Assembly: GCA_001775475.1 (NCBI GenBank)
Contig: MEWW01000017.1
Coordinates: 1-43,214 of the forward strand
Direction: 5' to 3'
Length of the DNA stretch: 43,214 bases
Source: Candidatus Adlerbacteria bacterium RIFCSPHIGHO2_12_FULL_53_18
GTDB taxonomy: Bacteria; Patescibacteriota; Minisyncoccia; Phycocordibacterales; SBAW01
Shown: piece by piece, positions 6,394-33,263 of the stretch
How the letters are laid out: each line of letters begins with the position of its first letter
How positions within the stretch are numbered: the stretch's first letter is position 1
Translations under genes and position numbers: made by a program
Notes under the pieces: model-generated
What the model was told of the DNA's origin: nothing
What the model saw: only the letters and a program-made list of their open reading frames with translations
Database searches by the model: none

Positions 6394-6461
6394 TTTTGTG
6401 CTATATTTAAGTTGTGTATAGGTACCCCCCAGAGCAGCTGCGGGGGATTTATCGCGTATAT

Positions 6462-14867: not shown

Positions 14868-14889
14868 TTATTTGTGGTATAGTGCTTAT

Positions 14890-15072: not shown

Positions 15073-15091
15073 TCGCCCACTCCAGTTGGCT

Positions 15092-15355: not shown

Positions 15356-15358
15356 CCT

Positions 15359-17254: not shown

Positions 17255-17255
17255 C

Positions 17256-17828: not shown

Positions 17829-17829
17829 G

Positions 17830-17907
17830 TCCCGTTAGAGACCCGCATATACACTATGTCTGATAAAATTTCACCACAAAGAAAAAGTTCCTTAGTCTCT
17901 AACGGGA
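17830..17907 (+). promoter_or_regulatory. Inverted repeat spanning the cyoD translation start
   Basis: TCCCGTTAGAGAC (17830-17842) and perfect complement GTCTCTAACGGGA (17895-17907), ending at the second in-frame ATG. Confidence 0.65.
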
Positions 17908-18269
17908 TGAGTACGTTACAGAACTATAGTATCGGCTTCCTGCTCTCAATCGCGTTTACGCTCGCGGCTTTTTGGCTCGTGTGGCAGCACGTACAGGGCG
18001 CGGCGCTGTTCTCTGCAGAAAAGCTTGTCGTGCTGTTGGTGGGGCTCGCCGTAGCTCAGCTCTACGTCCAGCTTATCTGCTTTTTGCATCTGGGGGCCGA
18101 GAAGCAGAGGCCGCGATGGAGCCTCATCATTTTTGCCTTTGCCGCGGTTGTCGTTGTGGTGCTCGTGGGCGGCACTATCTGGATTATGTACCACCTAGAC
18201 CGGGGTCATACTGATCTTTCGGAAATTTATCCAAGCGGCACGGTTTCGCCCCAAACCCAGGATGATTAG
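17856..18269 (+). CDS. cyoD: Quinol oxidase subunit IV
   Basis: YSIGFLLSIAFTLAAFWLVW...QLYVQLICFLHLG...; follows cyoC. Internal ATG 17907 is an alternative start. Confidence 0.85.
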   Translation: MSDKISPQRKSSLVSNGMSTLQNYSIGFLLSIAFTLAAFWLVWQHVQGAALFSAEKLVVLLVGLAVAQLYVQLICFLHLGAEKQRPRWSLIIFAFAAVVVVVLVGGTIWIMYHLDRGHTDLSEIYPSGTVSPQTQDD

Positions 18270-18957
18270 TTCCTACTACGAGCTGGTGAAGCCGCGCATG
18301 GTGCTGATGAATGTCTTGGTAGCTGTGGCGGTGTTTATCTTTGCCTCACCCGAGGTTATTAGCTGGGAGGCACTGAGCGTTATGGCTTCCGGCCTTGCTT
18401 TTGTGGTGGCGAGCGCATGCGTCTTCAACAACTACGCGGACCGGCACCTCGACGCCAAGATGGAGCGCACCAAGAACCGCGGCCTGGTGACCGGCGCAGT
18501 GACGCCCGCGCATGCGCTTGTCTTTGGCGGAGCGCTGCTGGTGTGCGGCGTCTTGCTACTGTATACGGTGCACCCCTTGGCTCTTGGGGTGGCACTCTTC
18601 GGGTTTGCGGTCTATGTGTTTGTCTACACGCCGCTTAAACCAAAAACCGGCTACGCGCTCTATGTGGGTGCTGTCGCGGGCGCCGCACCGCCCCTGGTAG
18701 GCTACGCGGCCGCGGCGCACACACTAGACTATATGGCACTGGCGCTCTTTGCTCTTTTGTTTTTGTGGCAGGTGCCGCACTTTTTGGCCATAGCACGTTA
18801 CCGCTATGATGAGTACTCTGCGGGCGGCGTACCGCTCTTGGTAGAGCGGCCAAAAAGCGCAGAGGAGCGCCAGCGTGCGCGAACAATCTTTTACCTGTCG
18901 CTCCTCGTGCTGCTTTTGTTCTGCCTTATCCTGATAGTCCAGAGGTGGATCAAGTAG
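18262..18957 (+). CDS. cyoE: Protoheme IX farnesyltransferase (haem O synthase), C-terminally short
   Basis: VKPRMVLMNVLVAV, NNYADRHLDAKMERTKNRGLVTG, VYTPLKPKTGYALYVGAVAGAAPPLVGY, DYMALALFALLFLWQVPHFLAIARYR; 231 aa. Confidence 0.93.
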   Translation: MISSYYELVKPRMVLMNVLVAVAVFIFASPEVISWEALSVMASGLAFVVASACVFNNYADRHLDAKMERTKNRGLVTGAVTPAHALVFGGALLVCGVLLLYTVHPLALGVALFGFAVYVFVYTPLKPKTGYALYVGAVAGAAPPLVGYAAAAHTLDYMALALFALLFLWQVPHFLAIARYRYDEYSAGGVPLLVERPKSAEERQRARTIFYLSLLVLLLFCLILIVQRWIK

Positions 18958-19522: not shown

Positions 19523-20164
19523 TCAAGACGGCCGGCGCTGGATGGGGAAAATCCTGGGCAGGAGCTCGAACTTGCGCAGGTAGCTCTCCACCCTGCTGAC
19601 GTGGTAGTTGTGCTCGCGACGGTCGTAGATCAGCAGATGCCAGAAGCAGTAGCCGATCAATGTCAGCAGGATGCCGCCAAACGTTTTTTCTGCCCAGTGG
19701 GCGCCAAAGAGCATACCTACGCCGAGCGCGCATATCATACCCAAAAGAAGGAGGGTTGCCGGACCGGTGTCAGCCAGCTGGCGACGTAGCGACCAGTACT
19801 CGAGGTTGTTCCAGGCCAGGTCGAACACCCGTTCGTTGAGAGGTCTTGCGAGATTCTCCCTCAACCCTAAGATAGTCGGTGTCGCCTTGCCGTCGCAATT
19901 CTTCGCCGTGACGAAATATTCATAGAGCTGAGGTTTGCTGGGCGTACGATAGACAGAAATGACGTAGTCCCTGTACTCTTTGGCGCGCATTACTGCTGCC
20001 AGTACCTCATCGCGGTCAGGCTCGTTCTCAAGCAAGTCGTGGAGCTCGGCAAAAGCCTGATCGTAGCCTTGAGCGACCGGAAGTTCAAGCAGGAGATATG
20101 GATTGAGTGCTGCTCTAATAACCTCTTGCTCTTCTTCGCTAGAAAATTCACTTATGTGGGGCAT
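19523..20164 (-). CDS. Hypothetical protein with C-terminal TM pair
   Basis: 213 aa; ATG 20164 with GAGGAG upstream on the minus strand; LLLLGMICALGVGMLFG...GGILLTLIGYCFWHLLI. Confidence 0.7.
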   Translation of the reverse strand: MPHISEFSSEEEQEVIRAALNPYLLLELPVAQGYDQAFAELHDLLENEPDRDEVLAAVMRAKEYRDYVISVYRTPSKPQLYEYFVTAKNCDGKATPTILGLRENLARPLNERVFDLAWNNLEYWSLRRQLADTGPATLLLLGMICALGVGMLFGAHWAEKTFGGILLTLIGYCFWHLLIYDRREHNYHVSRVESYLRKFELLPRIFPIQRRPS

Positions 20165-20264
20165 TTTCTCCTCGCAAAGTTGGGGAGTACTCTCCCGGTG
20201 ACTTTTCTAACGTTAGTGTACCGCCCCGACACATATTTCGCAACAGGTTTTATAAAAAGGGAAG

Positions 20265-20297
20265 CGCCGCCTTCGACCAGTGTGGTCTCAGGCAGCG
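20265..20297 (-). terminator. Repeated intrinsic terminator, copy 2
   Basis: CGCCGCCTTCGACCA-gtg-TGGTCTCAGGCAGCG; same family as 19471-19503 with a C-G to T-A compensatory change; AAAAAGG flank. Confidence 0.7.
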
Positions 20298-20310
20298 CAG
20301 AGCGCGGCAG

Positions 20311-20658
20311 TTAGTGGCCGTCGTATATCCATGTGTGCCACTCTTGAGCGGTCTTCTTTTCGACAAAATACAAATAGTGCACTGGGTAACTCGTCCAGCC
20401 TATGCTGATAATGCGACCGACATATTCCATGTCGGCAATGTCCAACCACGCGCAGGTGGTTCACAGCATTTTGTCCAGTTTCTTGATGCCCAGAAACGCC
20501 CTCTTGTCCTCGGGGACAAGTCCGTAGCGGATTACCCAACGCATGTCGGTGGCCGAGTGACAAAAAACACGCTCGTCTGAGGACAAGGAAGCCGGAGATG
20601 AAGCGGCACTTACAAGCGTCATCAGACTCACGGCCGTTACTGTACCGAGGTTCAACAT
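20311..20658 (-). pseudogene. Secreted small protein, paralog of 23960-24316, interrupted by an in-frame TGA at 20461-20463
   Basis: MLNLGTVTAVSLMTLVSAASSPASLSSDERVFCHSATDMRWVIRYGLVPEDKRAFLGIKKLDKML*TTCAWLDIADMEYVGRIISIGWTSYPVHYLYFVEKKTAQEWHTWIYDGH*; similar to the intact paralog on both sides of the stop; GGAGG before the start. Confidence 0.65.
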
Positions 20659-20701
20659 GAGTGCCTCCTGTAATAATGTACGCGCCAGTTTCCCTTATCA
20701 T

Positions 20702-20731
20702 CCACTATGCGCCTGAAATAAATGCTGTCAA
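20702..20731 (-). promoter_or_regulatory. Promoter of the TTGACA-N16-CATAGT class
   Basis: Minus strand TTGACA gcatttatttcaggcg CATAGT GG. Confidence 0.6.
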
Positions 20732-20780
20732 CTTATGCTACACTACGGATATTACAAATATTCGTTAACTGTAAGTCAGT

Positions 20781-21503
20781 ATGAAAAAACTGGTTTTGGG
20801 CGCGGCATTGGTAAGTATGTTCGGGTTTGCTGGAGTTGCGTTCGCGGCGTATTCATTTTTTGGCGATGCGTCTGTGGTGGCGGGTGGTAATCCAGGTAAC
20901 GCAGCTGAGATTGTCTCGGATGCAACGGGCGCAGCGTTTGGCGGGGTGCTTATCCCTCTTGCAGCACCGGTTGCATGGGCAGACTTCGATACTTTGAGTC
21001 TCGATTACAACATAACGGACGATAACTGCGGCGGCGGCTCACCGCGTGCACAGGTACGTATAGACACTACCGGCGACGGCGTCTCGGACGGTTCTGTTCG
21101 CATTGCACTTGGTCCATCACCAAACTTCACGGGTTGCGCCGCTGGGTGGCAGAGCACAGGCAACCTTATAGGCAATGAAGATGCTGGACGCTATGATTAC
21201 AGCGTATTCGGCGGGTCGCCATTTACGACTTACAGCAATGCACCTGCAGTAGTTACAGCTGGACAAGTTGTTGGCGTTACAGTTCTTGTCGACGGCAGTT
21301 GGAGCGCGGCAGCTACTGGCGGTGACAGCGAGCAGACCACTCTTGTAGATAATATTAATGTAAACGGCGAGATTGAGACCTTTGATCCGCCTCCGGGCCC
21401 CGAAACGAAAGACGACTGCAAGGATGGCGGTTGGGAAGGGTTTGGCTTTGAGAATCAAGGCCAGTGTGTTGCTTCGGTGGTGAGTCAGAGCGAAAACCAC
21501 TAA
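20781..21503 (+). CDS. Secreted protein with C-terminal KDDCKxGGW...FxNQGQCV motif
   Basis: Signal peptide MKKLVLGAALVSMFGFAGVAFA; C-terminus TKDDCKDGGWEGFGFENQGQCVASVVSQSENH. Confidence 0.85.
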   Translation: MKKLVLGAALVSMFGFAGVAFAAYSFFGDASVVAGGNPGNAAEIVSDATGAAFGGVLIPLAAPVAWADFDTLSLDYNITDDNCGGGSPRAQVRIDTTGDGVSDGSVRIALGPSPNFTGCAAGWQSTGNLIGNEDAGRYDYSVFGGSPFTTYSNAPAVVTAGQVVGVTVLVDGSWSAAATGGDSEQTTLVDNINVNGEIETFDPPPGPETKDDCKDGGWEGFGFENQGQCVASVVSQSENH

Positions 21504-21521
21504 GGTACATCCGATTAGTTC

Positions 21522-21552
21522 AACAAAACCGCCCTCAAGGGGCGGTTTTGTT
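21522..21552 (+). terminator. Strong intrinsic terminator
   Basis: AACAAAACCGCCC-tcaag-GGGCGGTTTTGTT. Confidence 0.9.
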
Positions 21553-21568
21553 GTGCTATGCTCGAGGT

Positions 21569-22294
21569 ATGAAATACGCACCTTATGTAGCTCTCGCCAG
21601 TGGGCTTTTTATTCTTTCTGCAGTTGGGCTTAGTGCAGCGACCGAAGTTATTCCCAACCTTAAGGCACTACCGGCAAGCGACATCAGGCTCGCACAAAGC
21701 GGTAGCTCGACGTTGCTGCGTTTTAGCACCACAGGGTGGAACGACGGCGTAGGGCCACTCGAGGTTTTCGCGGGAGAGATAGATAGAGAAAACGGCAAGC
21801 AAAACGTCTATCAGCGCATCTATAACACCGACGGTACGGTTTCTCGAGAGCCGTTGGTCGGCTCGTTTATCTGGCACGAGGCGCATAATCATTTCCACTT
21901 TGAGGATTACGCGACCTACACGCTGCAGCTTGCAGGTGCACCCGGCGCTTCAGACCGGTTTGGCCAAAAAACCACCTTCTGCATCATGGATACGACGAGG
22001 ATGAACACCAAACTCTCCGGAGCGCCAAAGCGCCCCGTGTATGACACGTGCGGAAGCGTGGTGCAGGGTATGTCAGTTGGTTGGGGCGACACCTACGGCT
22101 ACCAGCTTGCAGGGCAGGAGATTGATGTAACCGGCCTTGCAGACGGTGACTATAAGCTCATCATCGAACTTGATCCTAAAGACAAACTTGACGAGACAAA
22201 CGAAGGAGACAACGTAAGCATAATAGACATCCGCATTTCAAACGGCACGGTAAGCGTCATCGGCGGGGGAAGCCGCGGGCGCGGCAACCACTAG
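21569..22294 (+). CDS. Secreted lysyl oxidase-family (copper amine oxidase, LOX) protein
   Basis: WHEAHNHFHFEDYATYTL (copper talon), FGQKTTFCIMDT (LTQ Lys), GMSVGWGDTYGYQLAGQEIDVTGLADGDYKLIIELDPKDKLDETNEGDN (LTQ Tyr region); signal peptide. Confidence 0.9.
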   Translation: MKYAPYVALASGLFILSAVGLSAATEVIPNLKALPASDIRLAQSGSSTLLRFSTTGWNDGVGPLEVFAGEIDRENGKQNVYQRIYNTDGTVSREPLVGSFIWHEAHNHFHFEDYATYTLQLAGAPGASDRFGQKTTFCIMDTTRMNTKLSGAPKRPVYDTCGSVVQGMSVGWGDTYGYQLAGQEIDVTGLADGDYKLIIELDPKDKLDETNEGDNVSIIDIRISNGTVSVIGGGSRGRGNH

Positions 22295-23109
22295 CGGCTG
22301 TTGCGGCTCTCGCGCTCTCTAGGCTCTGCCCAGAAGACGTGGGTAAAGACGCTATCGTTGCCGCCCAACTCAAGCTCAAAGAGTGACGCGCGGCCGTCTG
22401 ACGAGCGGCGGACTTCGCGCCCCCAGTGTGTGGGGTCGTCGCCAAGGTCGTCCTGATTTTTCCCCTTGTTTGAGCTTGTGCTCTGCACAAGGGTCGTTGT
22501 GGTGTCGAGGTGTGCGTAAATTTCCTCAAGCATTTCGTAGTCGTGAGCGTTGGGGTGCTGGTTAGGGTTAGGGTCGCTTGAATAATCCATACACGTGCCG
22601 AGCGGCGTATTGCTAAAGTTTTCGTCCTGATGGTCAAGGCCAAAGATATGTCCTATTTCCTGGCACATCACCAGCGCGCGCCAGGTCGGCTTGTTGTAGG
22701 TGCTCATGCCAAAGTACGTGTCGTTCATCTTAACGAGCCCCTTGGTGATGTGGTTGCTGGAGATCCAGATTTGTGCCACGCCAAGCCAGCCGGTACGGCC
22801 ATATTTTTTGGCGCATACCTCTGCTCGGCCAGTCTGTGCGGTGCAGCTGGTACCCGCTTTGCCGGCGACAACACTGGTGTCTAACACACTCGAGACGCTC
22901 CAGTCGGTTGAGGCGGTGCGCAGGTAGCTGTCCCACGCGCTTCCGACATTGTCGCCCAGCTGTAAGGTAAAGGGGTTGCTTGTGCGCGCCCAGTGGTAGG
23001 CACCGGAAACGTTGCCCCACACATGGTCTGCAGAAGCTACTGATGCAAGTAACGTCAGACCTAAAACACCCGCCGCTAATGCACCGAGAGCACGTTGTCT
23101 AGGAGTCAT
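22291..23109 (-). CDS. Secreted matrixin-like (metzincin-related) putative metalloprotease with Gln in place of the first zinc His
   Basis: Signal peptide; LVMCQEIGHIFGLDHQDENFSNTPLGTCMDYSSDPNPNQHPNAHDYEMLEEIYAH: QExGHxxGLxH plus downstream CMDYS Met-turn. Confidence 0.85.
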   Translation of the reverse strand: MTPRQRALGALAAGVLGLTLLASVASADHVWGNVSGAYHWARTSNPFTLQLGDNVGSAWDSYLRTASTDWSVSSVLDTSVVAGKAGTSCTAQTGRAEVCAKKYGRTGWLGVAQIWISSNHITKGLVKMNDTYFGMSTYNKPTWRALVMCQEIGHIFGLDHQDENFSNTPLGTCMDYSSDPNPNQHPNAHDYEMLEEIYAHLDTTTTLVQSTSSNKGKNQDDLGDDPTHWGREVRRSSDGRASLFELELGGNDSVFTHVFWAEPRERESRNSR

Positions 23110-23150
23110 ACGGTAAAAGCCTTAAGGATAATTCGATTCTATACTAACAC

Positions 23151-23180
23151 GTACTATGCTCCGCAGAAAAATTCTGTCAA
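23151..23180 (-). promoter_or_regulatory. Promoter of the TTGACA-N16-CATAGT class
   Basis: Minus strand TTGACA gaatttttctgcggag CATAGT AC. Confidence 0.6.
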
Positions 23181-23188
23181 CAAGGCAT

Positions 23189-23219
23189 TTGACACGGCTT
23201 TGTAGCAGGAACATAGTGT
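23189..23219 (+). promoter_or_regulatory. Promoter with TTGACA and CATAGT
   Basis: TTGACA cggctttgtagcaggaa CATAGT GT (N17), upstream of 23280. Confidence 0.55.
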
Positions 23220-23279
23220 ATTTTAGATGAATCTGTGCTCTCCATGGGGAGAGCCAGCACCGGCAAGGAGGTTAAGGGG

Positions 23280-23849
23280 ATGTTTACAATGCGCACGTTG
23301 CTTGCGGTAGCCTTTGTCTTTGGCGGTGTCTCTTTTGGCAAAGCCGAAGAGCCAGAAGCGGGCCTCGGCACGCTCTGTATGGCCGACTTCCTGTACAAGG
23401 AGGTCAACTACCGAGAGAGTCAAGAGGGTTATCTGAGGCTGCTCGCAGTGCAGGAGATCAACAGTATTGCAGGCGTCACCGTCTGCGACAACTACCTCTA
23501 CAAGTACCTCAAGATTCGGCCAGTTGGTCTCATCAGCGTGCATGGGGCTGTGCACGAGCTATGGCAACTGCGCATAACCTTTCTGCTTTCTACGACGCTC
23601 ATCTATGTGCAGCACCATCCGAGTCAAATTTTCTATCTCTACGGTGCAATCGCTGCGGAAGGGCCGCTGATACCGATACCGGTCCCGCGGCCGGACCTGT
23701 CAGAGCGTGTACAAGCCCCCGACACAAACGAACCCGCTCCCGAGCCGAGGCCTCCAATCGACGACGAACTGCCGGAGCCCGACCCCTGGCTCCCGCCCGA
23801 TGAGTTTGACGTGCTCTCGCCTGAATACCTGCACGAAATTCGGTTCTGA
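23280..23849 (+). CDS. Secreted protein with proline/acidic C-terminal tail; possible distant paralog of the two-Cys family
   Basis: SD AAGGAGG, signal peptide MRTLLAVAFVFGGVSFGKA, C-x35-C spacing, tail PVPRPDLSERVQAPDTNEPAPEPRPPIDDELPEPDPWLPPDE. Confidence 0.7.
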   Translation: MFTMRTLLAVAFVFGGVSFGKAEEPEAGLGTLCMADFLYKEVNYRESQEGYLRLLAVQEINSIAGVTVCDNYLYKYLKIRPVGLISVHGAVHELWQLRITFLLSTTLIYVQHHPSQIFYLYGAIAAEGPLIPIPVPRPDLSERVQAPDTNEPAPEPRPPIDDELPEPDPWLPPDEFDVLSPEYLHEIRF

Positions 23850-23870
23850 GCCGCCTGATGCCCACTTTCG

Positions 23871-23900
23871 GCCCCGCAAACCATCGCGGGGCTGTTTTTT
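23871..23900 (+). terminator. Intrinsic terminator
   Basis: GCCCCGC-aaaccatc-GCGGGGC-TGTTTTTT. Confidence 0.85.
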
Positions 23901-23913
23901 ATAAAAACAAAAG

Positions 23914-23941
23914 CGCCGCCCAAAGAAATGCCTGGGCGGCG
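23914..23941 (-). terminator. CGCCGCCC-type minus-strand terminator
   Basis: CGCCGCCCA-aagaaatgcc-TGGGCGGCG with AAAAACAAAAG on the left. Confidence 0.7.
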
Positions 23942-23959
23942 GGCAATGTTGGCCGAAAC

Positions 23960-24316
23960 TCACGGGAGACGGAACCACGTCCAGGTGAACCATTTCATTC
24001 CGGTCCTTGCCTCGATGTAGCTCAGACGTCTGACAGGCAGGCGTCTCTCGTTGATAGTGCTGTTGTCCGCCCGGTGATAGACCATGTCGGACATCTTGCG
24101 CCACTCGCAGCTTCCGAGCAGGAAGTCATACCATGTACGCGTAGTGAAGAATGCCAGAAAATTATCGGCGTCCACGACGTAGCGGACGGCGATATCCATG
24201 TCCATACGTGAGCGGCAAAAGACCCGCTCCTCCGGCACCATCCCGGTCTGCTCTTCGTGAGGAGCCGCGGTGAAAGTGACAAGCCCCACCACAGCGACTT
24301 TAACAAGGTGCAGCAT
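23960..24316 (-). CDS. Small secreted two-Cys protein
   Basis: MLHLVKVAVVGLVTFTAAPHEEQTGMVPEERVFCRSRMDMDIAVRYVVDADNFLAFFTTRTWYDFLLGSCEWRKMSDMVY...; AGGAGG upstream; own promoter and terminator. Confidence 0.7.
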   Translation of the reverse strand: MLHLVKVAVVGLVTFTAAPHEEQTGMVPEERVFCRSRMDMDIAVRYVVDADNFLAFFTTRTWYDFLLGSCEWRKMSDMVYHRADNSTINERRLPVRRLSYIEARTGMKWFTWTWFRLP

Positions 24317-24354
24317 CGCACTCCTCCTGCGACGTTAGGCCCCTAACCCTATGC

Positions 24355-24384
24355 CTACTATGCCAGCGGGATACAAGATGTCAA
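24355..24384 (-). promoter_or_regulatory. Promoter of the TTGACA-N16-CATAGT class
   Basis: Minus strand TTGACA tcttgtatcccgctgg CATAGT AG. Confidence 0.6.
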
Positions 24385-24440
24385 TAAAAGGAATGGGGCT
24401 GTTTTATAATTTTATAATTTCAACAATAGTAATACACAGA

Positions 24441-24456
24441 TTTCGCACGTGCGAAA
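24441..24456. promoter_or_regulatory. Perfect 16-bp palindrome
   Basis: TTTCGCAC|GTGCGAAA; no coding explanation. Confidence 0.5.
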
Positions 24457-24473
24457 AAAGTGAATAAACGCGC

Positions 24474-24511
24474 ATACACCACTCTTAAGCTATAGCGTAA
24501 GAGTGGTGTAT
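24474..24511. repeat. 38-bp palindrome centred on GCTATAGC
   Basis: ATACACCACTCTTA-aGCTATAGCg-TAAGAGTGGTGTAT. Confidence 0.8.
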
Positions 24512-24599
24512 AGAGGTAGAGCCTAAAAAATAAAAAAACGCGCCGCCAAGACTAGGAGGTCAGGGTGGCGCGGAAGCGTACGAAGAGAGGGGAGCCGGA

Positions 24600-25253
24600 T
24601 CAAGTCGGGCTTCTGGTTCGGTGGTAGTGGGTGACGCTCCCTGGCGGGAAGAGATCTTCCGGCGGATACAATATGTTCTGCAACTTCTTCTTATTCTTTT
24701 GGATTGAGAAGGGATAGTAGAAGAAAGCGCCGGCCAGACCGAGCATAAACATAAGGAAGCCGGTGAAGTAGGTGGCCACCAAGCCATCGAGCGGGGTGTA
24801 GAAGTGTTGCCAGCCGCCCGCCCACATGAGTATCGCCAACGCCACCATGAGAAACAGCAGCCCAAAAATGACCGAGATATGGTTCTTCTCCTCGGAGATC
24901 TCCAAGTAGCTCATGTTTTCGAGCTGCTTTTCGGCCAGCTTACGGAGCTCCTCGTCGCCGACAATGTCGTGGCCGGCGGGGTAGGCAAGCCACCGCGCTT
25001 TCGATTCTTTGTGTTTGACGACTACAAGATGGCGCATGCCGAACATGAACGGATAGACACGAGCAGTGGTACCGCCCTTGTGCATGATTTCCATTTCGAC
25101 GACGTTCTGCACTACTTTGGGCAGGCGCAGCAGGTCGGTTGCAAAGCCGATCGGTTTTGGCTCGCGTTGAAAGATGATAGGCGTGAGGTCGGCAACTGCC
25201 GCATTGAGAACACGCGTTCTCGAATATCCGGTTAACAGATGGTCTTCCGACAT
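24600..25253 (-). CDS. Hypothetical membrane protein with cytosolic N-domain and C-terminal TM pair
   Basis: 217 aa MSEDHLLTGYSRTRVLNAAVADLTPIIFQREPKPIGFATDLL...; two hydrophobic segments. Confidence 0.7.
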   Translation of the reverse strand: MSEDHLLTGYSRTRVLNAAVADLTPIIFQREPKPIGFATDLLRLPKVVQNVVEMEIMHKGGTTARVYPFMFGMRHLVVVKHKESKARWLAYPAGHDIVGDEELRKLAEKQLENMSYLEISEEKNHISVIFGLLFLMVALAILMWAGGWQHFYTPLDGLVATYFTGFLMFMLGLAGAFFYYPFSIQKNKKKLQNILYPPEDLFPPGSVTHYHRTRSPT

Positions 25254-25326
25254 CGAACACTCCCGTGGTTGTGTTGAAGATCGTTCATGTTTACATAGCT
25301 AAAATTCCGGCACAAAGTCAAATTTG

Positions 25327-25362
25327 ATATTGACGCTCTTCATGAAGAAATCTCGAATATTT
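25327..25362. repeat. 36-bp direct repeat, copy 1
   Basis: ATATTGACGCTCTTCATGAAGAAATCTCGAATATTT; upstream of the minus-strand gene 24600-25253. Confidence 0.85.
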
Positions 25363-25376
25363 GTAGAAAAATAAAA

Positions 25377-25399
25377 GGGCGGGGTCGAAGACCCCGCCC
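25377..25399 (-). terminator. Strong intrinsic terminator
   Basis: GGGCGGGGTC-gaa-GACCCCGCCC, left flank AGAAAAATAAAA. Confidence 0.85.
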
Positions 25400-25425
25400 T
25401 TGACACCTAGTCGGTGCCGCCTTCT

Positions 25426-25689
25426 TCAGCCGCAGCTTGCAGCCGGCTGGCCGCTCGCGTCGACGCGCTTCTCGCACTCCTTCTTGGTGATGCAGATTTC
25501 CTGCACTACGCCGCCGATCTCGGCCTGCACGACATTGCCGTCGCATGGACTGCTGTTCGTCGCGTAGCTCCAGAGGCATCCGCACCCAATGATTGCTGCC
25601 GCAATGGGCAGCCGCAGCGCTCCGTGGGCCAAAGCACCCACGGGGTCGCAGACAAGTCCCGCGTTAAATGACAATGTACTTCTCCTCAT
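25426..25689 (-). CDS. Small Cys-rich secreted or lipoprotein-like hypothetical protein
   Basis: MRRSTLSFNAGLVCDPVGALAHGALRLPIAAAIIGCGCLWSYATNSSPCDGNVVQAEIGGVVQEICITKKECEKRVDASGQPAASCG; terminator follows. Confidence 0.5.
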   Translation of the reverse strand: MRRSTLSFNAGLVCDPVGALAHGALRLPIAAAIIGCGCLWSYATNSSPCDGNVVQAEIGGVVQEICITKKECEKRVDASGQPAASCG

Positions 25690-25723
25690 GTTGTGCGCTT
25701 ATGCGCAGGTGGAAGTTCAGGCG

Positions 25724-26575
25724 TCAGTTCTGTGCCGACAGGCTCGGGATCGCCCGCAGGGCGTCCTTCACCGTTACGGCTTCGACTGCTCCCTCGAGGA
25801 CCTTGCCCAACGTACAGCGGGCAATTTGCTCGAAGTTGTCGGTCGACACTTCATACTTGTTTTCGTCGCTCTGGCCCGGTTCCGGCACGATATCGTGGAA
25901 GCCGAGCACGAGCCAAGAGCGCTCTTTTGCTGCACGGCCGACGGCCGCACAGACGTCTTTGACCGCCGTGTCGCGGGTGACGATGAGGCGGTTCACCTGA
26001 TAGTGGTCGATGCCGGTAAGTGGGTTTTGCCCCTCGCCGGCGTCGCTTTCTCCCCAGGCGCCGACCTGATTGTCGTAGAGATTTTTCACCGTCTCGAGCA
26101 CCGCGTCGTTGTAGTCGCCGGACGGCGAAGCAAACGACGTGGGATAGAAGCCGAGGTTGCGATACATCACCGCCGCCGGATAGCCCAGCTCTTCACGCAG
26201 CTGATGCTCGTCGACAGACGTCAGCATCGGGTGCGAGTGAGAATGAGAGCCCACCTCCCAGTGCATGTCGGTCCAACTCCGAACCTGCTCCCAACTCATC
26301 GTCGCCCCTCTCTCGCCGACTCCGGTTGGGGTGTCGGCAATCCCATCGGTGTTGATGAAGAGCGTACCCGGCAGTCCGTACTTCCGCACGATAGCGCGGC
26401 CGTACTCGTACTGGCTGAGAAGCCCGTCGTCAAACGTGATCGAGACCTTGCCCGTGGGGGTTGGCCGAGGCGCCGGTGTAGGCACCTGCGGTTGTGCCGC
26501 GAGTGCAACGGTAGCAAACACCGCTGCGAAGCACGTATGTGCAAAGCAAGCGGTAATGAGGCGTAGAATCCGCAT
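25724..26575 (-). CDS. Secreted polysaccharide deacetylase (NodB homology domain, CE4)
   Basis: VSITFDDGLLSQYEYG, EVGSHSHSHPML, SFASPSGDYND, LVLGFHDI. Confidence 0.93.
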   Translation of the reverse strand: MRILRLITACFAHTCFAAVFATVALAAQPQVPTPAPRPTPTGKVSITFDDGLLSQYEYGRAIVRKYGLPGTLFINTDGIADTPTGVGERGATMSWEQVRSWTDMHWEVGSHSHSHPMLTSVDEHQLREELGYPAAVMYRNLGFYPTSFASPSGDYNDAVLETVKNLYDNQVGAWGESDAGEGQNPLTGIDHYQVNRLIVTRDTAVKDVCAAVGRAAKERSWLVLGFHDIVPEPGQSDENKYEVSTDNFEQIARCTLGKVLEGAVEAVTVKDALRAIPSLSAQN

Positions 26576-26613
26576 GAGTAAGTTCTCCTCTCTTGTGCGG
26601 GTTGGTAGGGAAG

Positions 26614-27783
26614 TCAGTGACCTTTATCCCACGAGTGGAGCTTGTCCCGAAGGATCCACTCCTTCCAGATGGAATACAGGTATACGCCGAAGCTTACATA
26701 CTGCGTCACTAGAGTGGCGGGCAAGCTTGCCAGGGCCGTCGAGAACATGCCAAGCCGATATGCCCGCCACAGCGCCGGCACTCCCATGGTGATCATCTGG
26801 AGTGCCATCATCCATCCAATCGCCGAGACAACCCCGTAGCCTGCCCACAAGAGCATCACAGGCAGCATCATGGGGCCGATCAGAAACCACACGACATACA
26901 CGTAGATGAGCAGCTGGAGACGCCAGCTGCCGAACTTGTAGAACTTACGCACGGCGATGTTCTGCAGGAATCCGCGATACCACCGCGAAAGCTGCTTCAC
27001 ATAGATGCCGAAGGTCGGTGGGTCTACCGGGTAGCACTTGGCTTCAGGGGCAAAATACACGTGATACCCCTTGCCGGTTGCTTCCCAGGTTAAGTCCAGG
27101 TCCTCCGCCATTGTCCGTTCGTTGAAGTGGCCGAACTCCTCGAGCGTTTCCTTGGTACGGAAAACGCTGAAGCAGCCGGAGGCGACAAGCACCATCCGGT
27201 TGTGGTTCTGCGCCGGCTTGATAATCGTGAGGCCGTAGAGATATTCGATAAACCGGCCGCGTTCCCACAGTGTTTGTATCTTCTGCGGGACAACAAAGCC
27301 CGAGACAATGAGCGTTTTCGGATCGTTGAAGTAGCGGATGGTCTTCTCGACTGCATCGGGCGCCACAATCGTGTCTGCATCCACCGTGACGAACAAGTCC
27401 GTCTTGACGAATGCTAGAGCAAGATTTTGCGCCTGCGCCTTGGTGCCGCGGTTCTTCGGCGTGCGATACACCGCGGCGCCGAGCGACCGGGCGATGTCGC
27501 CCGTGCGGTCGGTAGAGCAGTCGTCGACGACGATGATTTCGTCGAGACGGTAGGTCTGCGCCTGGAGGCTTCTGATCGTTGAAGCGATCGAAACTTCTTC
27601 GTTGTAGGCCGGGATTATTGCTGTAATAGACAATCGCCCGCTACTCGGGCGATTGAAGGCCACTTCTTTCGGTGATAGCCCGAGGAACCAGCGCCCCCCG
27701 TCTATCAGGTGTTCTCTCAGCGCCATCTCTTTGGCCTTTCTTGCGGTTGGATTGACAAAAAGGAGAATAATTACAATGTCCAA
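26614..27783 (-). CDS. Family 2 processive glycosyltransferase (PgaC/IcaA/NodC-like)
   Basis: ITAIIPAYNEEVSIASTIRSLQAQTYRLDEIIVVDDCSTDRTGD, VDADT, EDLDLTW, QLSRWYRG, C-terminal TM helices. ATG 27726 is an alternative start. Confidence 0.93.
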   Translation of the reverse strand: MDIVIILLFVNPTARKAKEMALREHLIDGGRWFLGLSPKEVAFNRPSSGRLSITAIIPAYNEEVSIASTIRSLQAQTYRLDEIIVVDDCSTDRTGDIARSLGAAVYRTPKNRGTKAQAQNLALAFVKTDLFVTVDADTIVAPDAVEKTIRYFNDPKTLIVSGFVVPQKIQTLWERGRFIEYLYGLTIIKPAQNHNRMVLVASGCFSVFRTKETLEEFGHFNERTMAEDLDLTWEATGKGYHVYFAPEAKCYPVDPPTFGIYVKQLSRWYRGFLQNIAVRKFYKFGSWRLQLLIYVYVVWFLIGPMMLPVMLLWAGYGVVSAIGWMMALQMITMGVPALWRAYRLGMFSTALASLPATLVTQYVSFGVYLYSIWKEWILRDKLHSWDKGH

Positions 27784-27845
27784 GTCTCTCGCAATTTTAA
27801 CCTATAAAACATGTTTTGTAAATGAAGCTGATTTTGCCTATTTTA

Positions 27846-27881
27846 ATATTGACGCTCTTCATGAAGAAATCCCGAATATTT
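27846..27881. repeat. 36-bp direct repeat, copy 2
   Basis: ATATTGACGCTCTTCATGAAGAAATCCCGAATATTT; 35/36 identical to 25327-25362; contains palindrome CTTCATGAAG. Confidence 0.85.
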
Positions 27882-27945
27882 TGTGCACATTTTGTCCACG
27901 CGTTACCCACGGGTTGTACACAGCTTACCAACAGGTTTACCCACA
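27881..27945 (+). promoter_or_regulatory. Array of six DnaA-box-like 9-mers, 11-nt phased (candidate replication origin or DnaA-binding control region)
   Basis: TTGTGCACA (27881), TTGTCCACG (27892), TTACCCACG (27903), TTGTACACA (27914), TTACCAACA (27925), TTACCCACA (27937); start-to-start spacing 11,11,11,11,12. Confidence 0.65.
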
Positions 27946-28107
27946 AAAGGTGCTAAAGTGGAAATAAGGAAACCAGCGCGTGTGCTAGCGTTCACAGACG
28001 TGTTTTGTATTTCGAACGAAATATAAGGCGCGGGTTCTGCTCGTTCGTACATATTACTCATGGTGCAACCGAGACTCTTTAATGCATCGCGCGCGGGACT
28101 CTCAACG

Positions 28108-28160
28108 AGAGCTGCTTTTGCTTCTTGCCTAAAAAGCGAGTAACAAGAGCAGCTCTTTTT
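28108..28160 (+). terminator. Attenuator/terminator-like hairpin in the leader of the TasA-like gene
   Basis: AGAGCTGCTTTTG...CAAGAGCAGCTCT followed by TTTTGTTTG, about 150 nt upstream of ATG 28310. Confidence 0.55.
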
Positions 28161-28309
28161 GTTTGAGATCTGCGAGGTTGGTCGGTCAGCGACACTAAAG
28201 AGCAGGGCTTCACTGAAAACACCTTCAGGTAAATTTCAGGGGGCTTAACGGCACAATGATAGAGGTTTATCCATTAGTAGCTTATTAACTAGCAAATTAT
28301 TAAAAAAAT

Positions 28310-30016
28310 ATGAAACGACTTTTAGTTAGCGCAGGTACGCTGATCTTCATCGGCGCAGTTGCAATCAGCGCAACAGGCGCATTCTTTAGCGACACTGAAA
28401 CGTCGACAGGGAACACGTTTGCAGCAGGAGAGCTCGATCTCACGATTGACAACACCAGCTACGGGTTTGATTGGAACGATCCGTTAGCTACAAACCCGAC
28501 AGGTGTATGGGGACTTAACGCAGCCAACTCATGGCAACTCGCAGACCTCACGAACCAGCTATTCTTTAGCTTCGATGACCTTAAACCGGGAGATTACGGT
28601 GAGGACACCATCTCGCTCCATGTGCAAAACAACGCATGGGCATGTATGGCTCTTGATCTCACTGGAACACCAGAAAATGGTGTCAACGAGCCGGAAGCCG
28701 ACTTCCCAGACCTTACTGTCGGTGCTGACGAGGGTGAGCTCCAGAATTACCTCTCGTTCCTCTTCTGGAACGACGACGGCGACAATGTTCTTGAGACTGG
28801 AGAGACGGTAATTCCGGAATTAAGTGGCCTTCCGGGCTCTGCCTTTACTGGCAACTGGCTCGCGATTGCAGACCAAGGCGACACGCCACTTCAAGCTGGC
28901 ACGACGACGTGGATTGGCAAGGGTTGGTGCTTTGGCACGATGACCCCAAATCCAGTTGTGCAAGACAATGCATCCTCAAGTCCTCCTGTGGCGCCGGATC
29001 GCATCGGCTTTACCTGCAACGGTGCAGGCGACCACAACATCGCACAGACCGACGGTATCGTTGTAGACGTCCACTTCTACGCAGAGCAGTCAAGAAATAA
29101 TCCAAACTTCTTGTGCTCACAACTCCCTCCGCCTGATGGTCGCCAAGTCGTTGGTGCAGCAGCTGCAACATATGACGATCCTGCAATCTGTAATGTAACA
29201 GTTGACCTCGGCGAATCGCTCCAAGCTGCTATTGATGTGGCTGCTCCGGGAGACACAATTTGTGTTGATCCGACATATACAGGTGTGGGTGACGTTGCAA
29301 GTGTGATTGAAGTTAATGAACTTAATCTAACCATTGCAGGTCTTGGCGCAGCGGGCGCCGCAACGGTCAGCAAGGGTCTTCACATTGACGCAAATGGTGT
29401 AACGATCAAAGGCTTGACACTCAACGCGCACCCTCTCATCGAGGCTAGCGAACAAGCGGCGATCTACATTAATTCTGCGATCACAGGTACTACTATCACT
29501 CATAACCTGATTGATGGTCCTCCAGGCGCTATCGCGGCCAATGCTAAGGGCATCATCACGGAGATCGGGAACGATGGAACAGCAGGTGCTTCTGGCATCC
29601 TGGTTGCCCACAACCTGATTCGTGGCTGGAATCAGGGCATCTTCTTCAACACAGCAAACGCTGAAGTTAGATTCAACGACATCTATGCAAACACAGTGGG
29701 TGTTGCAAATGATGGCCCGCACAACACAACAATTCACCACAACGACTTCGACGGTAACACTGCCGAGGCCGTTGGTGTAGCTCCTTCCGCCAATAACGGA
29801 ACAGCTAACAATGGTGACTTGGATGTAAATACAAACAACTTCACTCCGGCGGGAGCAGGGAATAATGTAAATCATTATCTTGCTTCAGTTGTAGGAGGTG
29901 CAGATGTAAATGCTACGAATAACTTCTGGGATAGTGAAGTCGAAGCAGATAGGACAAATGTTCCTGCTGAGGTAGATACTTCATCTCCTGCAGCAGTAGC
30001 GTTCCCTGAAAACTAG
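28310..30016 (+). CDS. SipW-dependent (TasA/camelysin-like) surface protein with C-terminal right-handed beta-helix
   Basis: MKRLLVSAGTLIFIGAVAISATGAFFSDTETSTGNTFAAGELDLTIDN...; DLKPGDYGEDTISLHV; C-terminal repeats typical of parallel beta-helix proteins. Confidence 0.88.
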   Translation: MKRLLVSAGTLIFIGAVAISATGAFFSDTETSTGNTFAAGELDLTIDNTSYGFDWNDPLATNPTGVWGLNAANSWQLADLTNQLFFSFDDLKPGDYGEDTISLHVQNNAWACMALDLTGTPENGVNEPEADFPDLTVGADEGELQNYLSFLFWNDDGDNVLETGETVIPELSGLPGSAFTGNWLAIADQGDTPLQAGTTTWIGKGWCFGTMTPNPVVQDNASSSPPVAPDRIGFTCNGAGDHNIAQTDGIVVDVHFYAEQSRNNPNFLCSQLPPPDGRQVVGAAAATYDDPAICNVTVDLGESLQAAIDVAAPGDTICVDPTYTGVGDVASVIEVNELNLTIAGLGAAGAATVSKGLHIDANGVTIKGLTLNAHPLIEASEQAAIYINSAITGTTITHNLIDGPPGAIAANAKGIITEIGNDGTAGASGILVAHNLIRGWNQGIFFNTANAEVRFNDIYANTVGVANDGPHNTTIHHNDFDGNTAEAVGVAPSANNGTANNGDLDVNTNNFTPAGAGNNVNHYLASVVGGADVNATNNFWDSEVEADRTNVPAEVDTSSPAAVAFPEN

Positions 30017-30033
30017 TCCTCTCTAGCCGAATC

Positions 30034-30082
30034 CAGCACTAACACTTAGTGCTGGGCGGGCTAGGTGGGATTTATTCCTAGC
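30034..30082 (+). repeat. Tandem hairpins between two SipW-substrate genes
   Basis: CAGCACTAA-cac-TTAGTGCTG then GCTAGG-tgggatttatt-CCTAGC. Confidence 0.65.
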
Positions 30083-30118
30083 GTCGTTGGATTAATTAAT
30101 AGTTTTTACTAACTCAGT

Positions 30119-31618
30119 ATGAAAAGGATACTCTTGGGCACAGTTACGATAGTAGGGGCACTTGCAGCAATGTATATCGGGGTGACGGGCGCGTTTTTTA
30201 GCGACACAGAGACAAGTACCGGCAACACCTTTGCCGCCGGCGCGATTGACCTCTTGGTTGATAACGAGTCGTACTACAACGGCAATGTATGCGCCGAGAC
30301 GGCTCCTGACAGCGGCATTTGGCAATGGCAAGGCAATGCATTGTTTCCTGTCCCCGGCACCGAGTGCGACACGAGCTGGGAACTCGACAACTTAACCGGA
30401 CACCTCTTCTTTAACTTTACCGACATCAAGCCTGATGATGAAGGCGAAGACACTATCTCCCTGCACGTAAACACCAACGACGCTTATATGTGTATGAACA
30501 TTGCTCTCACAGAGAATGATGACAATAACACAACCGAGCCCGAGGGCTTGGTAGACCCAACCGCCAACCCCGACACCGAATGGGATGGCGAGCTCGCGCA
30601 GACTCTACAAATGGTCTGGTGGGCTGACGACAGCGACAATGTGCTGGAGCACGGCGAGACAATACTTACGGGCGACGGAACCGTTGTCGGCGGTGTTGAA
30701 ACCTTGTTTAACCTCGCCTCAACCAGCGGGCCGTTTGTGGTGGCGCTGGCAGACTCTGAAAACAATGTATGGGACCCACAGAATCCGGGTCCAGTACCGG
30801 GTGAAGAAACTCGCTACATCGGCAAGGCATGGTGCTTTGGCACACTGACTATCAGCCCTGTTCCATTTGACACTGGAGTGAGTCCTGCAGTTGACCCAGG
30901 GGTGTTATGCGACGGAACATTGCTTGGCAACGAAACCCAGACCGACAGCGCTCTGCTCGACGTGACGTTTGACGCAGTGCAGGCGCGCAACAATCCGGAT
31001 TTTGTGTGTCTCGAAGATGAGTGCACCTTCAACGAGCAGGTAGACCTGCTTGTTGCAACCGCTAAGTTTGAGAATCCGGAGGTAACTACCGCTCAAAACT
31101 GGGACGTCTTCGGCTCGCCGGTAGACGGCTGGAACGTTGATTGGCGCGGCGATATACCAGCAACCTTTGGCCCGCAAAATCGTCCGGCAGTCGCCAACCT
31201 TGAGTACCACGAAGGTGTCCTTGGTGCGGCGTTTGAGGGCGACCAGTATGCTGAGCTCGACTCCGACTGGGGAGGCCCTTCAGACGCGGGCACTGGTGAA
31301 CCGGCTTCTGTAAGTATCTATCGCAACTTTGTAACGGTGCCGGGTGCGCAGTACTTGCTCAAGTATCACTTCTCGCCACGTCCTAACACTCCAGCAGCAG
31401 ATAACAATCTTGAAGCAAAAGTAGAAGGTGTTGCACTTAACACCACGGGCCCAACTGCGGGCGGTGGAGCAATTGCATGGAGTGAAATTGTGGTCCCATT
31501 TATCGCTGGTGATGCAAGCACTGAAATCCGCTTTACCGACCTTGGTACCGCAAACTCGCTCGGTACATTCCTCGACAATGTTCGCTTGTACCAGATCAGC
31601 TGTCCGGTGGTGCAATAG
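30119..31618 (+). CDS. SipW-dependent TasA-like protein with C-terminal DUF642-like carbohydrate-binding domain
   Basis: GAFFSDTETSTGNTFAAGAIDLLVDN, DIKPDDEGEDTISLHV; C-terminus ENPEVTTAQNWDVFGSPVDGWNVDW...FLDNVRLYQ. Confidence 0.87.
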   Translation: MKRILLGTVTIVGALAAMYIGVTGAFFSDTETSTGNTFAAGAIDLLVDNESYYNGNVCAETAPDSGIWQWQGNALFPVPGTECDTSWELDNLTGHLFFNFTDIKPDDEGEDTISLHVNTNDAYMCMNIALTENDDNNTTEPEGLVDPTANPDTEWDGELAQTLQMVWWADDSDNVLEHGETILTGDGTVVGGVETLFNLASTSGPFVVALADSENNVWDPQNPGPVPGEETRYIGKAWCFGTLTISPVPFDTGVSPAVDPGVLCDGTLLGNETQTDSALLDVTFDAVQARNNPDFVCLEDECTFNEQVDLLVATAKFENPEVTTAQNWDVFGSPVDGWNVDWRGDIPATFGPQNRPAVANLEYHEGVLGAAFEGDQYAELDSDWGGPSDAGTGEPASVSIYRNFVTVPGAQYLLKYHFSPRPNTPAADNNLEAKVEGVALNTTGPTAGGGAIAWSEIVVPFIAGDASTEIRFTDLGTANSLGTFLDNVRLYQISCPVVQ

Positions 31619-31650
31619 TTCTACCCGCTAATGTTCTCTCAACAATCTGA

Positions 31651-32667
31651 ATGAGAGCCGCAACCCACAAATCTTTGGTGGCGAGAGCACTCCTTGTAGC
31701 AGGGGTACTCTCGCTTGCATCCGGATTGTTTGTAGTGCGTGCGCAGGAGCCAGAGAGCACCTATGCCCGCTCGTACAGCTATCACAGTTTTGACCTTACC
31801 GTAGACAGTGAGGCCTCTTACAACGGGGTGCCGTGGCCTGATGGCACGTGGGACTTAAAAGACCTAAAGCCGTGGAAGGACAAGTTTTGGAACTTTGGCG
31901 ACATCAAGCCGGGCGACAAGGGGGAGAACACGATTAGCCTCCATGTAAACAAAGACGCCTGGGTGTGTCTCGAGTTCTTAAACTTAAAGGAGCAGGAGAA
32001 CGGCGAAAACGAACCGGAGTCTTTAGACGACAACAGTGCGCCCAGCGAAGGCGAGCTAGCCGACCAGATGGAGTTTTTTGCCTGGCACGACGACGGCGAC
32101 AACATTTTTCAAGTAGGGGAGATACCGATTTTTGGCACGACGACCCAGGCCGCCACGCAAGTGTTAAACAACAAGGTGTACCCTATAGCCGACTACACAC
32201 ATGGCCCGGCAATCCCCAAAAACCAGACCAAGTACTTCGGTGTGTATTGGTGCGCGGGCAACCTCACGGTTGACGTTGCAACGGCTTTTCTAGCCTGCGA
32301 CGGCTCTGCCATGAACAACGACTCGCAGACCGACAGCATGTCGGTGGATGTGCAGCTGGTTGCCGTGCCCAAAAATGACAAGCCGAAGTTTACCTGCGAC
32401 AAAATCGTAGTGCCGCCGCCGGGCGAGCAGTGCGAGGTGGGCAAGGTGGAAATAAAGGTGGAGAACAACGCCGTAATCATCAACAACACATCCTCAAACA
32501 GCAACACTGGAGACAACTCGGCGGGCCCGGGCGGCACGGTAACTACCGGCAATGCGAGTTCAAATTCAAATACGATCAACGTGGTTAACACGACCATAAT
32601 CCAAAACGGGGGCACCAGCACTTCGAGCATCATCAACATCCTGCAAAATATGATCAGACGGCGATAA
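31651..32667 (+). CDS. TasA-like paralog with Asn/Thr/Ser-rich C-terminal repeats
   Basis: YSYHSFDLTVDSEASYNG, DIKPGDKGENTISLHVNKDAWVCLEF; C-terminus SSNSNTGDNSAGPGGTVTTGNASSNSNTINVVNTTIIQNGG. Confidence 0.82.
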   Translation: MRAATHKSLVARALLVAGVLSLASGLFVVRAQEPESTYARSYSYHSFDLTVDSEASYNGVPWPDGTWDLKDLKPWKDKFWNFGDIKPGDKGENTISLHVNKDAWVCLEFLNLKEQENGENEPESLDDNSAPSEGELADQMEFFAWHDDGDNIFQVGEIPIFGTTTQAATQVLNNKVYPIADYTHGPAIPKNQTKYFGVYWCAGNLTVDVATAFLACDGSAMNNDSQTDSMSVDVQLVAVPKNDKPKFTCDKIVVPPPGEQCEVGKVEIKVENNAVIINNTSSNSNTGDNSAGPGGTVTTGNASSNSNTINVVNTTIIQNGGTSTSSIINILQNMIRRR

Positions 32668-32669
32668 GT

Positions 32670-33263
32670 ATGAAAACCCTCGGCAAAATAATCTACGGAC
32701 TTTTTGTGACAGCGCTGGTTGGCGTTGCGGCACTGCTCTTGGTCTCGCTTATGCCGATAACGGGCAACCTCGAACTCAAGATTGTAAAATCCGGCTCAAT
32801 GGAGCCCTCGATACCAACCGGCTCTATCGTGGTGGTGATGCCGCGCGCGAGCTACCAGGTGGGGGATGTGGTGACCTTCGGTAAGGACACCCCCCGCGAA
32901 ATACCGACCACGCACCGCGTTATTGCCAAGCGGGTTGAAAACGGGCAGACGGTCTTTACGACCAAGGGCGATGCCAACGAAGAGCAAGACCCGCGCGACA
33001 TCGCGCTCCGCGAGGTTATCGGCGGCGTACTCTTCCACGTGCCGTACCTGGGCTATGTGCTCGACTTTGCCCGGCAACCACTCGGCTTTGCGCTCTTAAT
33101 CGGGCTGCCAGCGACCATGATTGTCGTTGACGAGGCACTTAATATCGCTAGGGAGGTGGCGGCATTGCGCCGTCGGCGACATCAAGGTTCGACCTTGATG
33201 AATATGCCGGTGCCGCAGAAACCCCGAGTATTTTCTGAAAGAACGCGCATACCAACGCTATGA
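32670..33263 (+). CDS. sipW: Signal peptidase I, SipW/archaeal type (Ser-His)
   Basis: KIVKSGSMEPSIPTGSIVVV, TTHRVIAKR, TKGDANEEQDP; N- and C-terminal TMs. Confidence 0.92.
   Translation: MKTLGKIIYGLFVTALVGVAALLLVSLMPITGNLELKIVKSGSMEPSIPTGSIVVVMPRASYQVGDVVTFGKDTPREIPTTHRVIAKRVENGQTVFTTKGDANEEQDPRDIALREVIGGVLFHVPYLGYVLDFARQPLGFALLIGLPATMIVVDEALNIAREVAALRRRRHQGSTLMNMPVPQKPRVFSERTRIPTL

What the first reader, a model, noticed from the sequence alone, without database searches (positions are those of the whole stretch)
21569..22294. Bacterial lysyl oxidase with conserved copper talon and LTQ residues
HNHFHFEDY matches the LOX copper site, and the Lys in FGQKTTFC and Tyr in WGDTYGYQ align with residues that form lysyl tyrosylquinone in animal LOX (GHKASFC, CYDTYG). 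A predicted O2- and copper-dependent amine oxidase in a CPR-like cell fits with the copper-containing oxidase upstream. Prokaryotic LOX are known but poorly characterised; function here is unknown.
Basis: partly seen in the sequence, partly recalled or inferred. Interest (0 to 1): 0.7.

Follow-up and report, generated by a model that had tools for sequence, protein, structure and literature searches.

The report
Second, horizontally acquired lysyl oxidase
A tiny, reduced (CPR-type) bacterium carries a secreted copper enzyme of the same family that cross-links collagen in animals; it keeps the residues known to matter for the enzyme's copper site and cofactor, appears to have come from unrelated bacteria, and is one of two different copies in this genome.

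Summary
Window 21569-22294 (+) encodes a 241-aa exported lysyl oxidase: Pfam PF01186 E 1.4e-15, the only family matched. A confident AlphaFold model (pLDDT 90) matches only human LOXL2 (5ZE3) in the PDB with E<=0.001. H106/H108/H110 (copper) and K134/Y176 (LTQ precursors) align with the LOXL2 residues and are invariant in 40 of 40 sequences compared. Bacterial and even Parcubacterial LOX were already reported, so the enzyme is a new member of a known family.

(1) The genome has a second LOX (contig 10), ~38% identical. The window copy groups with Chloroflexota/Betaproteobacteria/Nitrospira LOX (up to 60-63% identity), the other with Patescibacteria. The window copy sits in a ~15-kb stretch between cyo and ATP-synthase operons, about 1 kb apart in a same-genus genome. 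(2) The Patescibacterial type directly precedes a PQQ-type aldose dehydrogenase (GSDH) gene in 11 loci, appears fused to it in two more, and all 9 LOX-bearing genomes of 297 in the order have GSDH (p 2.5e-8). (3) Some relatives fuse LOX to half a YceG/MltG domain.

The suggested link with the neighbouring cytochrome oxidase is not supported. Substrate and role remain inferred.

The parts
21569..22294 (+). Lysyl oxidase, 241 aa, exported; PF01186 match at residues 98-230
21569..21643 (+). Probable Sec signal peptide (residues about 1-24, cleavage near LSA-AT)
   Evidence: read from the sequence; no signal-peptide predictor was run; low model confidence in residues 1-20 agrees
21884..21898 (+). 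Copper-talon His triad H106-N-H108-F-H110 (H103, aligned to LOXL2 H623, just before at 21875-21877)
   Evidence: 40/40 conserved; aligned with LOXL2 H626/H628/H630
21968..21970 (+). K134, predicted LTQ lysine (LOXL2 K653)
22094..22096 (+). Y176, predicted LTQ tyrosine (LOXL2 Y689)
21524..21554 (+). GC-rich inverted repeat followed by a T-rich tract (ACCGCCC..GGGGCGGTTTTGTT) just before the start codon: possible terminator of the upstream gene 20781-21503
   Evidence: read from the sequence; not listed by the consensus scan, so tentative
19734..35042 (.). About 15-kb accessory stretch between the cyo operon and the ATP-synthase operon that holds the LOX gene; about 1 kb in same-genus genome G666

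Best explanation
The gene encodes an exported, copper- and O2-dependent amine oxidase of the lysyl oxidase family (PF01186). Cu(II) held by H106, H108 and H110 would let O2 convert Y176 to a quinone that K134 attacks, giving the LTQ cofactor (inferred from LOXL2). The mature enzyme would then turn primary amines, such as lysine side chains of surface proteins or small amines, into aldehydes with release of NH3 and H2O2. The gene was most likely gained horizontally from a bacterium of the Chloroflexota/Betaproteobacteria/Nitrospira LOX lineage, into an accessory stretch between cyo and atp, in a CPR cell that also carries the Patescibacterial LOX type next to a PQQ-type sugar dehydrogenase. Shown here: family, fold, conserved residues, two lineages in one genome, absence of LOX from the other genomes of the genus searched. 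Inferred: export, LTQ formation, activity, direction of transfer. My leading guess for role is oxidation of extracellular amines (surface-protein cross-linking about 35%, small-amine or host-derived amine use and H2O2 release about 35%, other 30%). The confidence given is for the enzyme identity and chemistry, not for the physiological role.
For: PF01186 E 1.4e-15, no other family. LOXL2 is the only PDB sequence hit and the only PDB fold hit with E<=0.001 (6e-11, TMq 0.62) for a model with pLDDT 90.2 and pTM 0.83. Copper His, K and Y invariant in 40/40 homologues. LOXL2 mutagenesis shows that these three His are essential for LTQ biogenesis (PMC9694262), and a prokaryotic (haloarchaeal) LOX is active as a recombinant enzyme (PMC6452851). 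Transfer: best identity 60-63% to Chloroflexota and 50-58% to Betaproteobacteria, Nitrospira and Nocardioides LOX, against about 38% to the LOX on contig 10 of the same genome. The tree puts the window copy on the non-Patescibacterial side with 100/99 support. Among 35 same-genus genomes only this one has LOX. The neighbourhood is an accessory stretch, and the contig is truly of this genus.
Against: No activity, copper or LTQ data. LOXL2 H652, whose H652Q mutant keeps under half of the LTQ, is Gln here (GQK for GHK), so LTQ formation could be less efficient or differently assisted. Only two Cys remain (C138, C161), fewer than in animal LOX (prior knowledge). Transfer: an AU test rejects grouping the window copy with the Patescibacterial clade in the 40-row set (p 0.005) but not in two reduced sets (p 0.15 and 0.27), so its exact attachment is unsettled. 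GC content matches the host genome (54%), so any transfer is old or came from a donor of like composition.
Confidence: 0.85

Rival explanations
1. A catalytically silent or cryptic LOX-fold protein: the fold and residues persist but the cell makes little or no active enzyme, as proposed for the haloarchaeal LOX.
For: Cultured Haloterrigena turkmenica showed no detectable amine oxidase activity although its LOX is active when refolded (PMC6452851). LOXL2 H652 equivalent is Gln here. No consensus promoter directly upstream of the gene.
Against: H106/H108/H110, K134 and Y176 stay invariant over 40 sequences down to about 30% identity, which speaks for selection on catalysis; frame intact, GC like the host's.
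Confidence: 0.15
2. The LOX works with the neighbouring cyo-type oxidase as part of an aerobic or copper-handling gene set.
For: cyo genes lie 3-8 kb upstream on the same contig; both enzymes use O2 and copper.
Against: No co-occurrence in the order: only this genome of 9 with LOX has COX1 (p 0.24; none of the other 8). In same-genus G666 the cyo and atp operons lie about 1 kb apart without LOX. At least two same-genus genomes share the cyo genes, none shares LOX.
Confidence: 0.05
3. Vertical inheritance: both LOX copies descend from one ancestral Patescibacterial gene by duplication, and the window copy only looks foreign.
For: AU test does not exclude it in two reduced data sets (p 0.15 and 0.27).
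Against: 60-63% identity to Chloroflexota LOX against 38% to the paralogue; 100/99 bipartition; AU p 0.005 in the 40-row set; no other LOX in 35 same-genus genomes.
Confidence: 0.08
4. Assembly or binning artefact: the LOX gene or its contig belongs to another organism.
For: The gene's nearest relatives are non-CPR and its direct neighbours have few same-genus matches.
Against: The same contig carries, on both sides, genes with homologues in conserved order in same-genus genomes (mostly 54-89% identical; AtpA 69-88% in 33 of 35); the adjacent protease-like gene has same-genus relatives at 52-60%; base composition is uniform.
Confidence: 0.04

Closest known systems
Human LOXL2 / LOX (PF01186, PDB 5ZE3)
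   Same: Catalytic domain fold, WHxxHxHxH copper motif, K653 and Y689 LTQ precursors, FC and DxY motifs
   Different: No SRCR domains; two Cys only; H637 and H652 not conserved (T and Q); about 26% identity over the core
Haloterrigena turkmenica LOX (PMC6452851)
   Same: Prokaryotic, hydrophobic signal peptide plus LOX domain; conserved His, Lys and Tyr; shown active on lysine polymers and many primary amines after refolding
   Different: Archaeal; not compared residue by residue here; has an inhibitory N-terminal stretch not evident in the shorter window protein
LOX of Chloroflexota, Variovorax, Gallionellaceae, Nitrospira and Nocardioides (L026-L037)
   Same: Closest relatives, 47-63% identity, same active-site motifs
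   Different: Many carry C-terminal extensions (total 340-388 aa), whereas the window protein is the bare domain; hosts are not CPR
Patescibacterial LOX (own contig 10 copy, L040-L051); Parcubacterial LOX were noted in PMC6452851, group 'short'
   Same: Family and active-site residues
   Different: About 38% identity; followed by a GSDH gene in 11 loci, apparently fused to GSDH in two others (L021, L023), or fused to half a YceG domain; the window copy has neither

Membership tests
Lysyl oxidase family (PF01186) | Pfam profile above curated cut-off | tested here: met
   57.9 bits against 20.4
Lysyl oxidase family (PF01186) | HxHxH copper triad | tested here: met
   H106/H108/H110, aligned to LOXL2 and invariant 40/40
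Lysyl oxidase family (PF01186) | LTQ precursor Lys and Tyr at homologous positions | tested here: met
   K134 and Y176
Lysyl oxidase family (PF01186) | LOX catalytic fold | tested here: met
   AlphaFold pLDDT 90.2; only 5ZE3 matched with E<=0.001
Lysyl oxidase family (PF01186) | Exported protein | tested here: inconclusive
   Signal-peptide-like N-terminus by eye; no predictor available
Lysyl oxidase family (PF01186) | Copper binding, LTQ formation, BAPN-sensitive amine oxidase activity | not testable with these tools
   needs protein
[quoted passage not shown]
   Gln133 in the window protein (GQK); an accessory residue, not one that defines the family
TPQ copper amine oxidase family (Cu_amine_oxid) | Pfam match to that family | tested here: not met
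   PF01186 is the only Pfam match
LOX-GSDH gene pair of Patescibacteria (described here) | GSDH gene adjacent or fused | tested here: not met
   For the window copy: the only GSDH of the genome lies on contig 10 next to the other LOX

The most novel reading that the evidence does not exclude
In Patescibacteria LOX works as half of a surface-located pair of quinone-cofactor enzymes: a Cu/LTQ amine oxidase and a PQQ-type aldose dehydrogenase encoded together, sometimes fused in one chain, sometimes with LOX tethered by a YceG-derived domain, that modify amines and sugars of the cell's own envelope or of a host cell. This genome would carry that pair on contig 10 plus an independently acquired second LOX in the window.
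Probability: 0.35. Interest if true: 0.65.

Novelty: new member of a known kind. Interest (0 to 1): 0.42.

Why it matters
Animal LOX builds the extracellular matrix, yet no physiological role for any prokaryotic LOX was found in the papers read. A reduced-genome bacterium that holds two LOX genes of different ancestry suggests that the activity is useful to such a cell. The LOX-GSDH linkage found in its relatives gives a testable lead to a partner enzyme, and the YceG fusions point to the cell envelope as the place of action.

Tried and rejected
Viral contigs hold no relative, and plasmids only distant Streptomyces and Gemmatirosa LOX at about 30% identity, so no vehicle of transfer was found. 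No NCBIfam model matched the LOX. The adjacent secreted protease-like gene has no Pfam match and only marginal PDB hits, and no near neighbour of the window LOX recurs beside the other LOX loci. Co-occurrence of LOX with COX1 was tested and not found. Lysine content of nearby exported proteins is unremarkable (0.8-5.3%) and names no substrate. Library searches pairing lysyl oxidase with Patescibacteria, or with sorbosone dehydrogenase, found nothing. A second tree without long branches had L052/L053 pulled into the Patescibacterial side on a long branch and is less trustworthy; a smaller, cleaner set was used instead.

Full report
Observation. It encodes 241 aa beginning with a signal-peptide-like stretch. 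A longer frame from GTG 21464 exists but would put the signal peptide inside the protein and run back through the inverted repeat at about 21530, so ATG 21569 is preferred. Pfam gives Lysyl_oxidase only, E 1.4e-15. No NCBIfam model matches.

Active site. phmmer against PDB sequences returns only human LOXL2 5ZE3 (E 4.2e-9), with the LTQ Lys and Tyr and the His cluster aligned residue for residue; an 11-sequence alignment agrees. Over 40 homologues H106, H108, H110, K134, C138, C161, D174, Y176 and Q183 are invariant, and H103 is kept in 38. One homologue (L049) with an insertion was outside that set. Grau-Bove et al. (PMC4448552) report that the first His of the motif is absent from bacterial sequences; it is present here and in most relatives examined. 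LOXL2 mutagenesis shows the three copper His are essential for LTQ, while H623 (H103 here) and H652 (Gln here) help (PMC9694262). The AlphaFold model made from 32 sequences is confident (pLDDT 90.2, pTM 0.83), and Foldseek against the PDB finds LOXL2 alone with E<=0.001 (6e-11 and 3e-10).

Host. G000 is a draft genome of 540 kb, 89% complete. AtpA from the same contig is 69-88% identical to homologues in same-genus genomes, with matches in 33 of 35 including the genome itself. Genes from about 6 to 19.7 kb and from 28 to 43 kb have homologues in conserved order in G207 or G666 of the same genus.

Two LOX genes of different ancestry. The genome has a second LOX on contig 10, 37-38% identical to the window copy. 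A scan of 84,980 species genomes found 35 related loci. The window protein is closest to a Chloroflexota protein (60-63%) and then to Gallionellaceae, Variovorax, Nocardioides, Nitrospira and other Betaproteobacteria (50-58%), while the contig-10 copy sits among Patescibacteria. In a 28-row tree the split between Patescibacterial LOX and the rest, window copy included, has 100/99 support, with the window copy beside Chloroflexota at 93/87. An AU test that forces the window copy into the Patescibacterial clade gives p 0.005 in the 40-row set but 0.15 and 0.27 in reduced sets. Foreign origin is therefore well supported by identity and branch support, but the exact attachment is not fixed, and the direction of transfer is inference. 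No other of 35 genomes of the genus has any LOX, and only 9 of 297 genomes of the order do.

Insertion context. In G666 the cyo operon and the gene that follows it lie about 1 kb from the ATP-synthase operon; in the window about 15 kb intervenes (19.7-35.0 kb), holding LOX, a secreted protein (20781-21503), a secreted protease-like protein (22291-23109, convergent with LOX and overlapping it by 4 bases), a glycosyltransferase, and SipW/camelysin-type exported proteins with a signal peptidase. G207 has the SipW set beside its ATP-synthase genes, so this stretch is modular. GC content of LOX (54.0%) equals that of the window.

Cytochrome oxidase. cyo genes at 14058-18957 are confirmed, and cyo-type oxidases in Parcubacteria are known (PMC5220378). 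LOX and COX1 do not co-occur in the order beyond this genome (1 of 9; Fisher p 0.24). Both need O2, but no link was found.

LOX and GSDH in relatives. Directly downstream of the contig-10 LOX lies a 380-aa protein with a hydrophobic N-terminus, of the glucose/sorbosone dehydrogenase family PF07995 (E 1.4e-79), closest in the PDB to 3A9G, 3DAS, 2ISM and soluble quinoprotein glucose dehydrogenase, with the HxGGR, HRN and DGRG motifs kept (that these serve PQQ binding is prior knowledge). Ten further Patescibacterial LOX loci have the same gene in the same place, one of them cut by a contig end, and in two more the LOX polypeptide continues into a region with the same GSDH motifs (L021, L023, read by eye, not scanned separately). 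Of 297 genomes in the order all 9 with LOX have GSDH against 37 of 288 without (Fisher p 2.5e-8; 3e-11 if only strong GSDH matches count). These counts treat genomes as independent; the nine belong to eight family codes, and in G003 and G142 the GSDH gene is not adjacent to LOX, which argues against mere co-transfer. The strong-match cut was chosen after seeing the data. The link is with the Patescibacterial LOX type; the window copy has no GSDH neighbour.

YceG fusions. Four relatives (L014, L015, L016, L018) carry before the LOX domain a match to about the first half of YceG/MltG (profile positions 1-140 of 275 at most, E 8e-9 to 4e-16), and a fifth (L019) a weak one. The rest of MltG, where I understand its catalytic residue to lie (prior knowledge), is missing, so the piece may serve as an envelope anchor (inference).

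How it probably works. Exported apo-enzyme binds Cu, self-processes Y176 with K134 to LTQ in the presence of O2, and oxidises primary amines to aldehydes with H2O2 and NH3. This is established for animal LOX; one archaeal LOX is active on a wide range of amines (PMC6452851). For this protein it is inferred from the residues and fold. The physiological substrate is unknown; surface-protein cross-linking and use of small or host-derived amines are about equally likely on present evidence.

Verdict. A correct observation of a genuine LOX; the enzyme is a new member of a known family, and LOX in Parcubacteria had been mentioned (PMC6452851, legend of its Figure 6). The added interest lies in the double, differently derived LOX set and in the LOX-GSDH pairing, for which no report was found in the held library.

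Noticed in passing
window 22291-23109 (-): Secreted protein with CQEIGHIFGLDHQDEN...LGTCMDYS: a metzincin-like zinc site with Gln in place of the first His of HExxHxxGxxH. No Pfam match, marginal PDB hits; relatives at 52-60% in three same-genus genomes.
   Followed up: partly
window 28310-33263 (+): Two SipW/camelysin-type exported proteins, a third related exported protein and a signal peptidase S26: looks like a TasA/SipW-type fibre set; present beside ATP synthase in same-genus G207.
   Followed up: partly
L011:6659-7801 and ten other loci; L021, L023: PQQ-type aldose dehydrogenase (GSDH) gene directly after the Patescibacterial LOX gene, apparently fused to it in two genomes.
   Followed up: yes
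L014, L015, L016, L018, weakly L019: LOX fused to the N-terminal half of a YceG/MltG domain in Patescibacteria.
   Followed up: partly
L011:1468-1995, L031:5121-5771, L039:3617-4330: Peptide methionine sulfoxide reductase (MsrA) or a relative within about 4 kb of LOX in three unrelated genomes, next to it in Nocardioides; could relate to H2O2 damage or be chance.
   Followed up: no
G294 C9:6235-7572 and C7:6251-7588: COX1 genes with 7-8 in-frame TGA codons in a genome of the same order: recoding, decay or contamination.
   Followed up: no
L054:1823-3687: Two tandem LOX genes in an actinobacterial MAG.
   Followed up: no
window 20781-21503 (+): Secreted protein ending in a TKDDCKDGGWEGFGFENQGQCV motif; weak relatives in two same-genus genomes; no Pfam family.
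   Followed up: partly
window 9338-10678 and 6414-9041 (+): UvrC (446 aa) and UvrA (875 aa) look shorter than usual.
   Followed up: no
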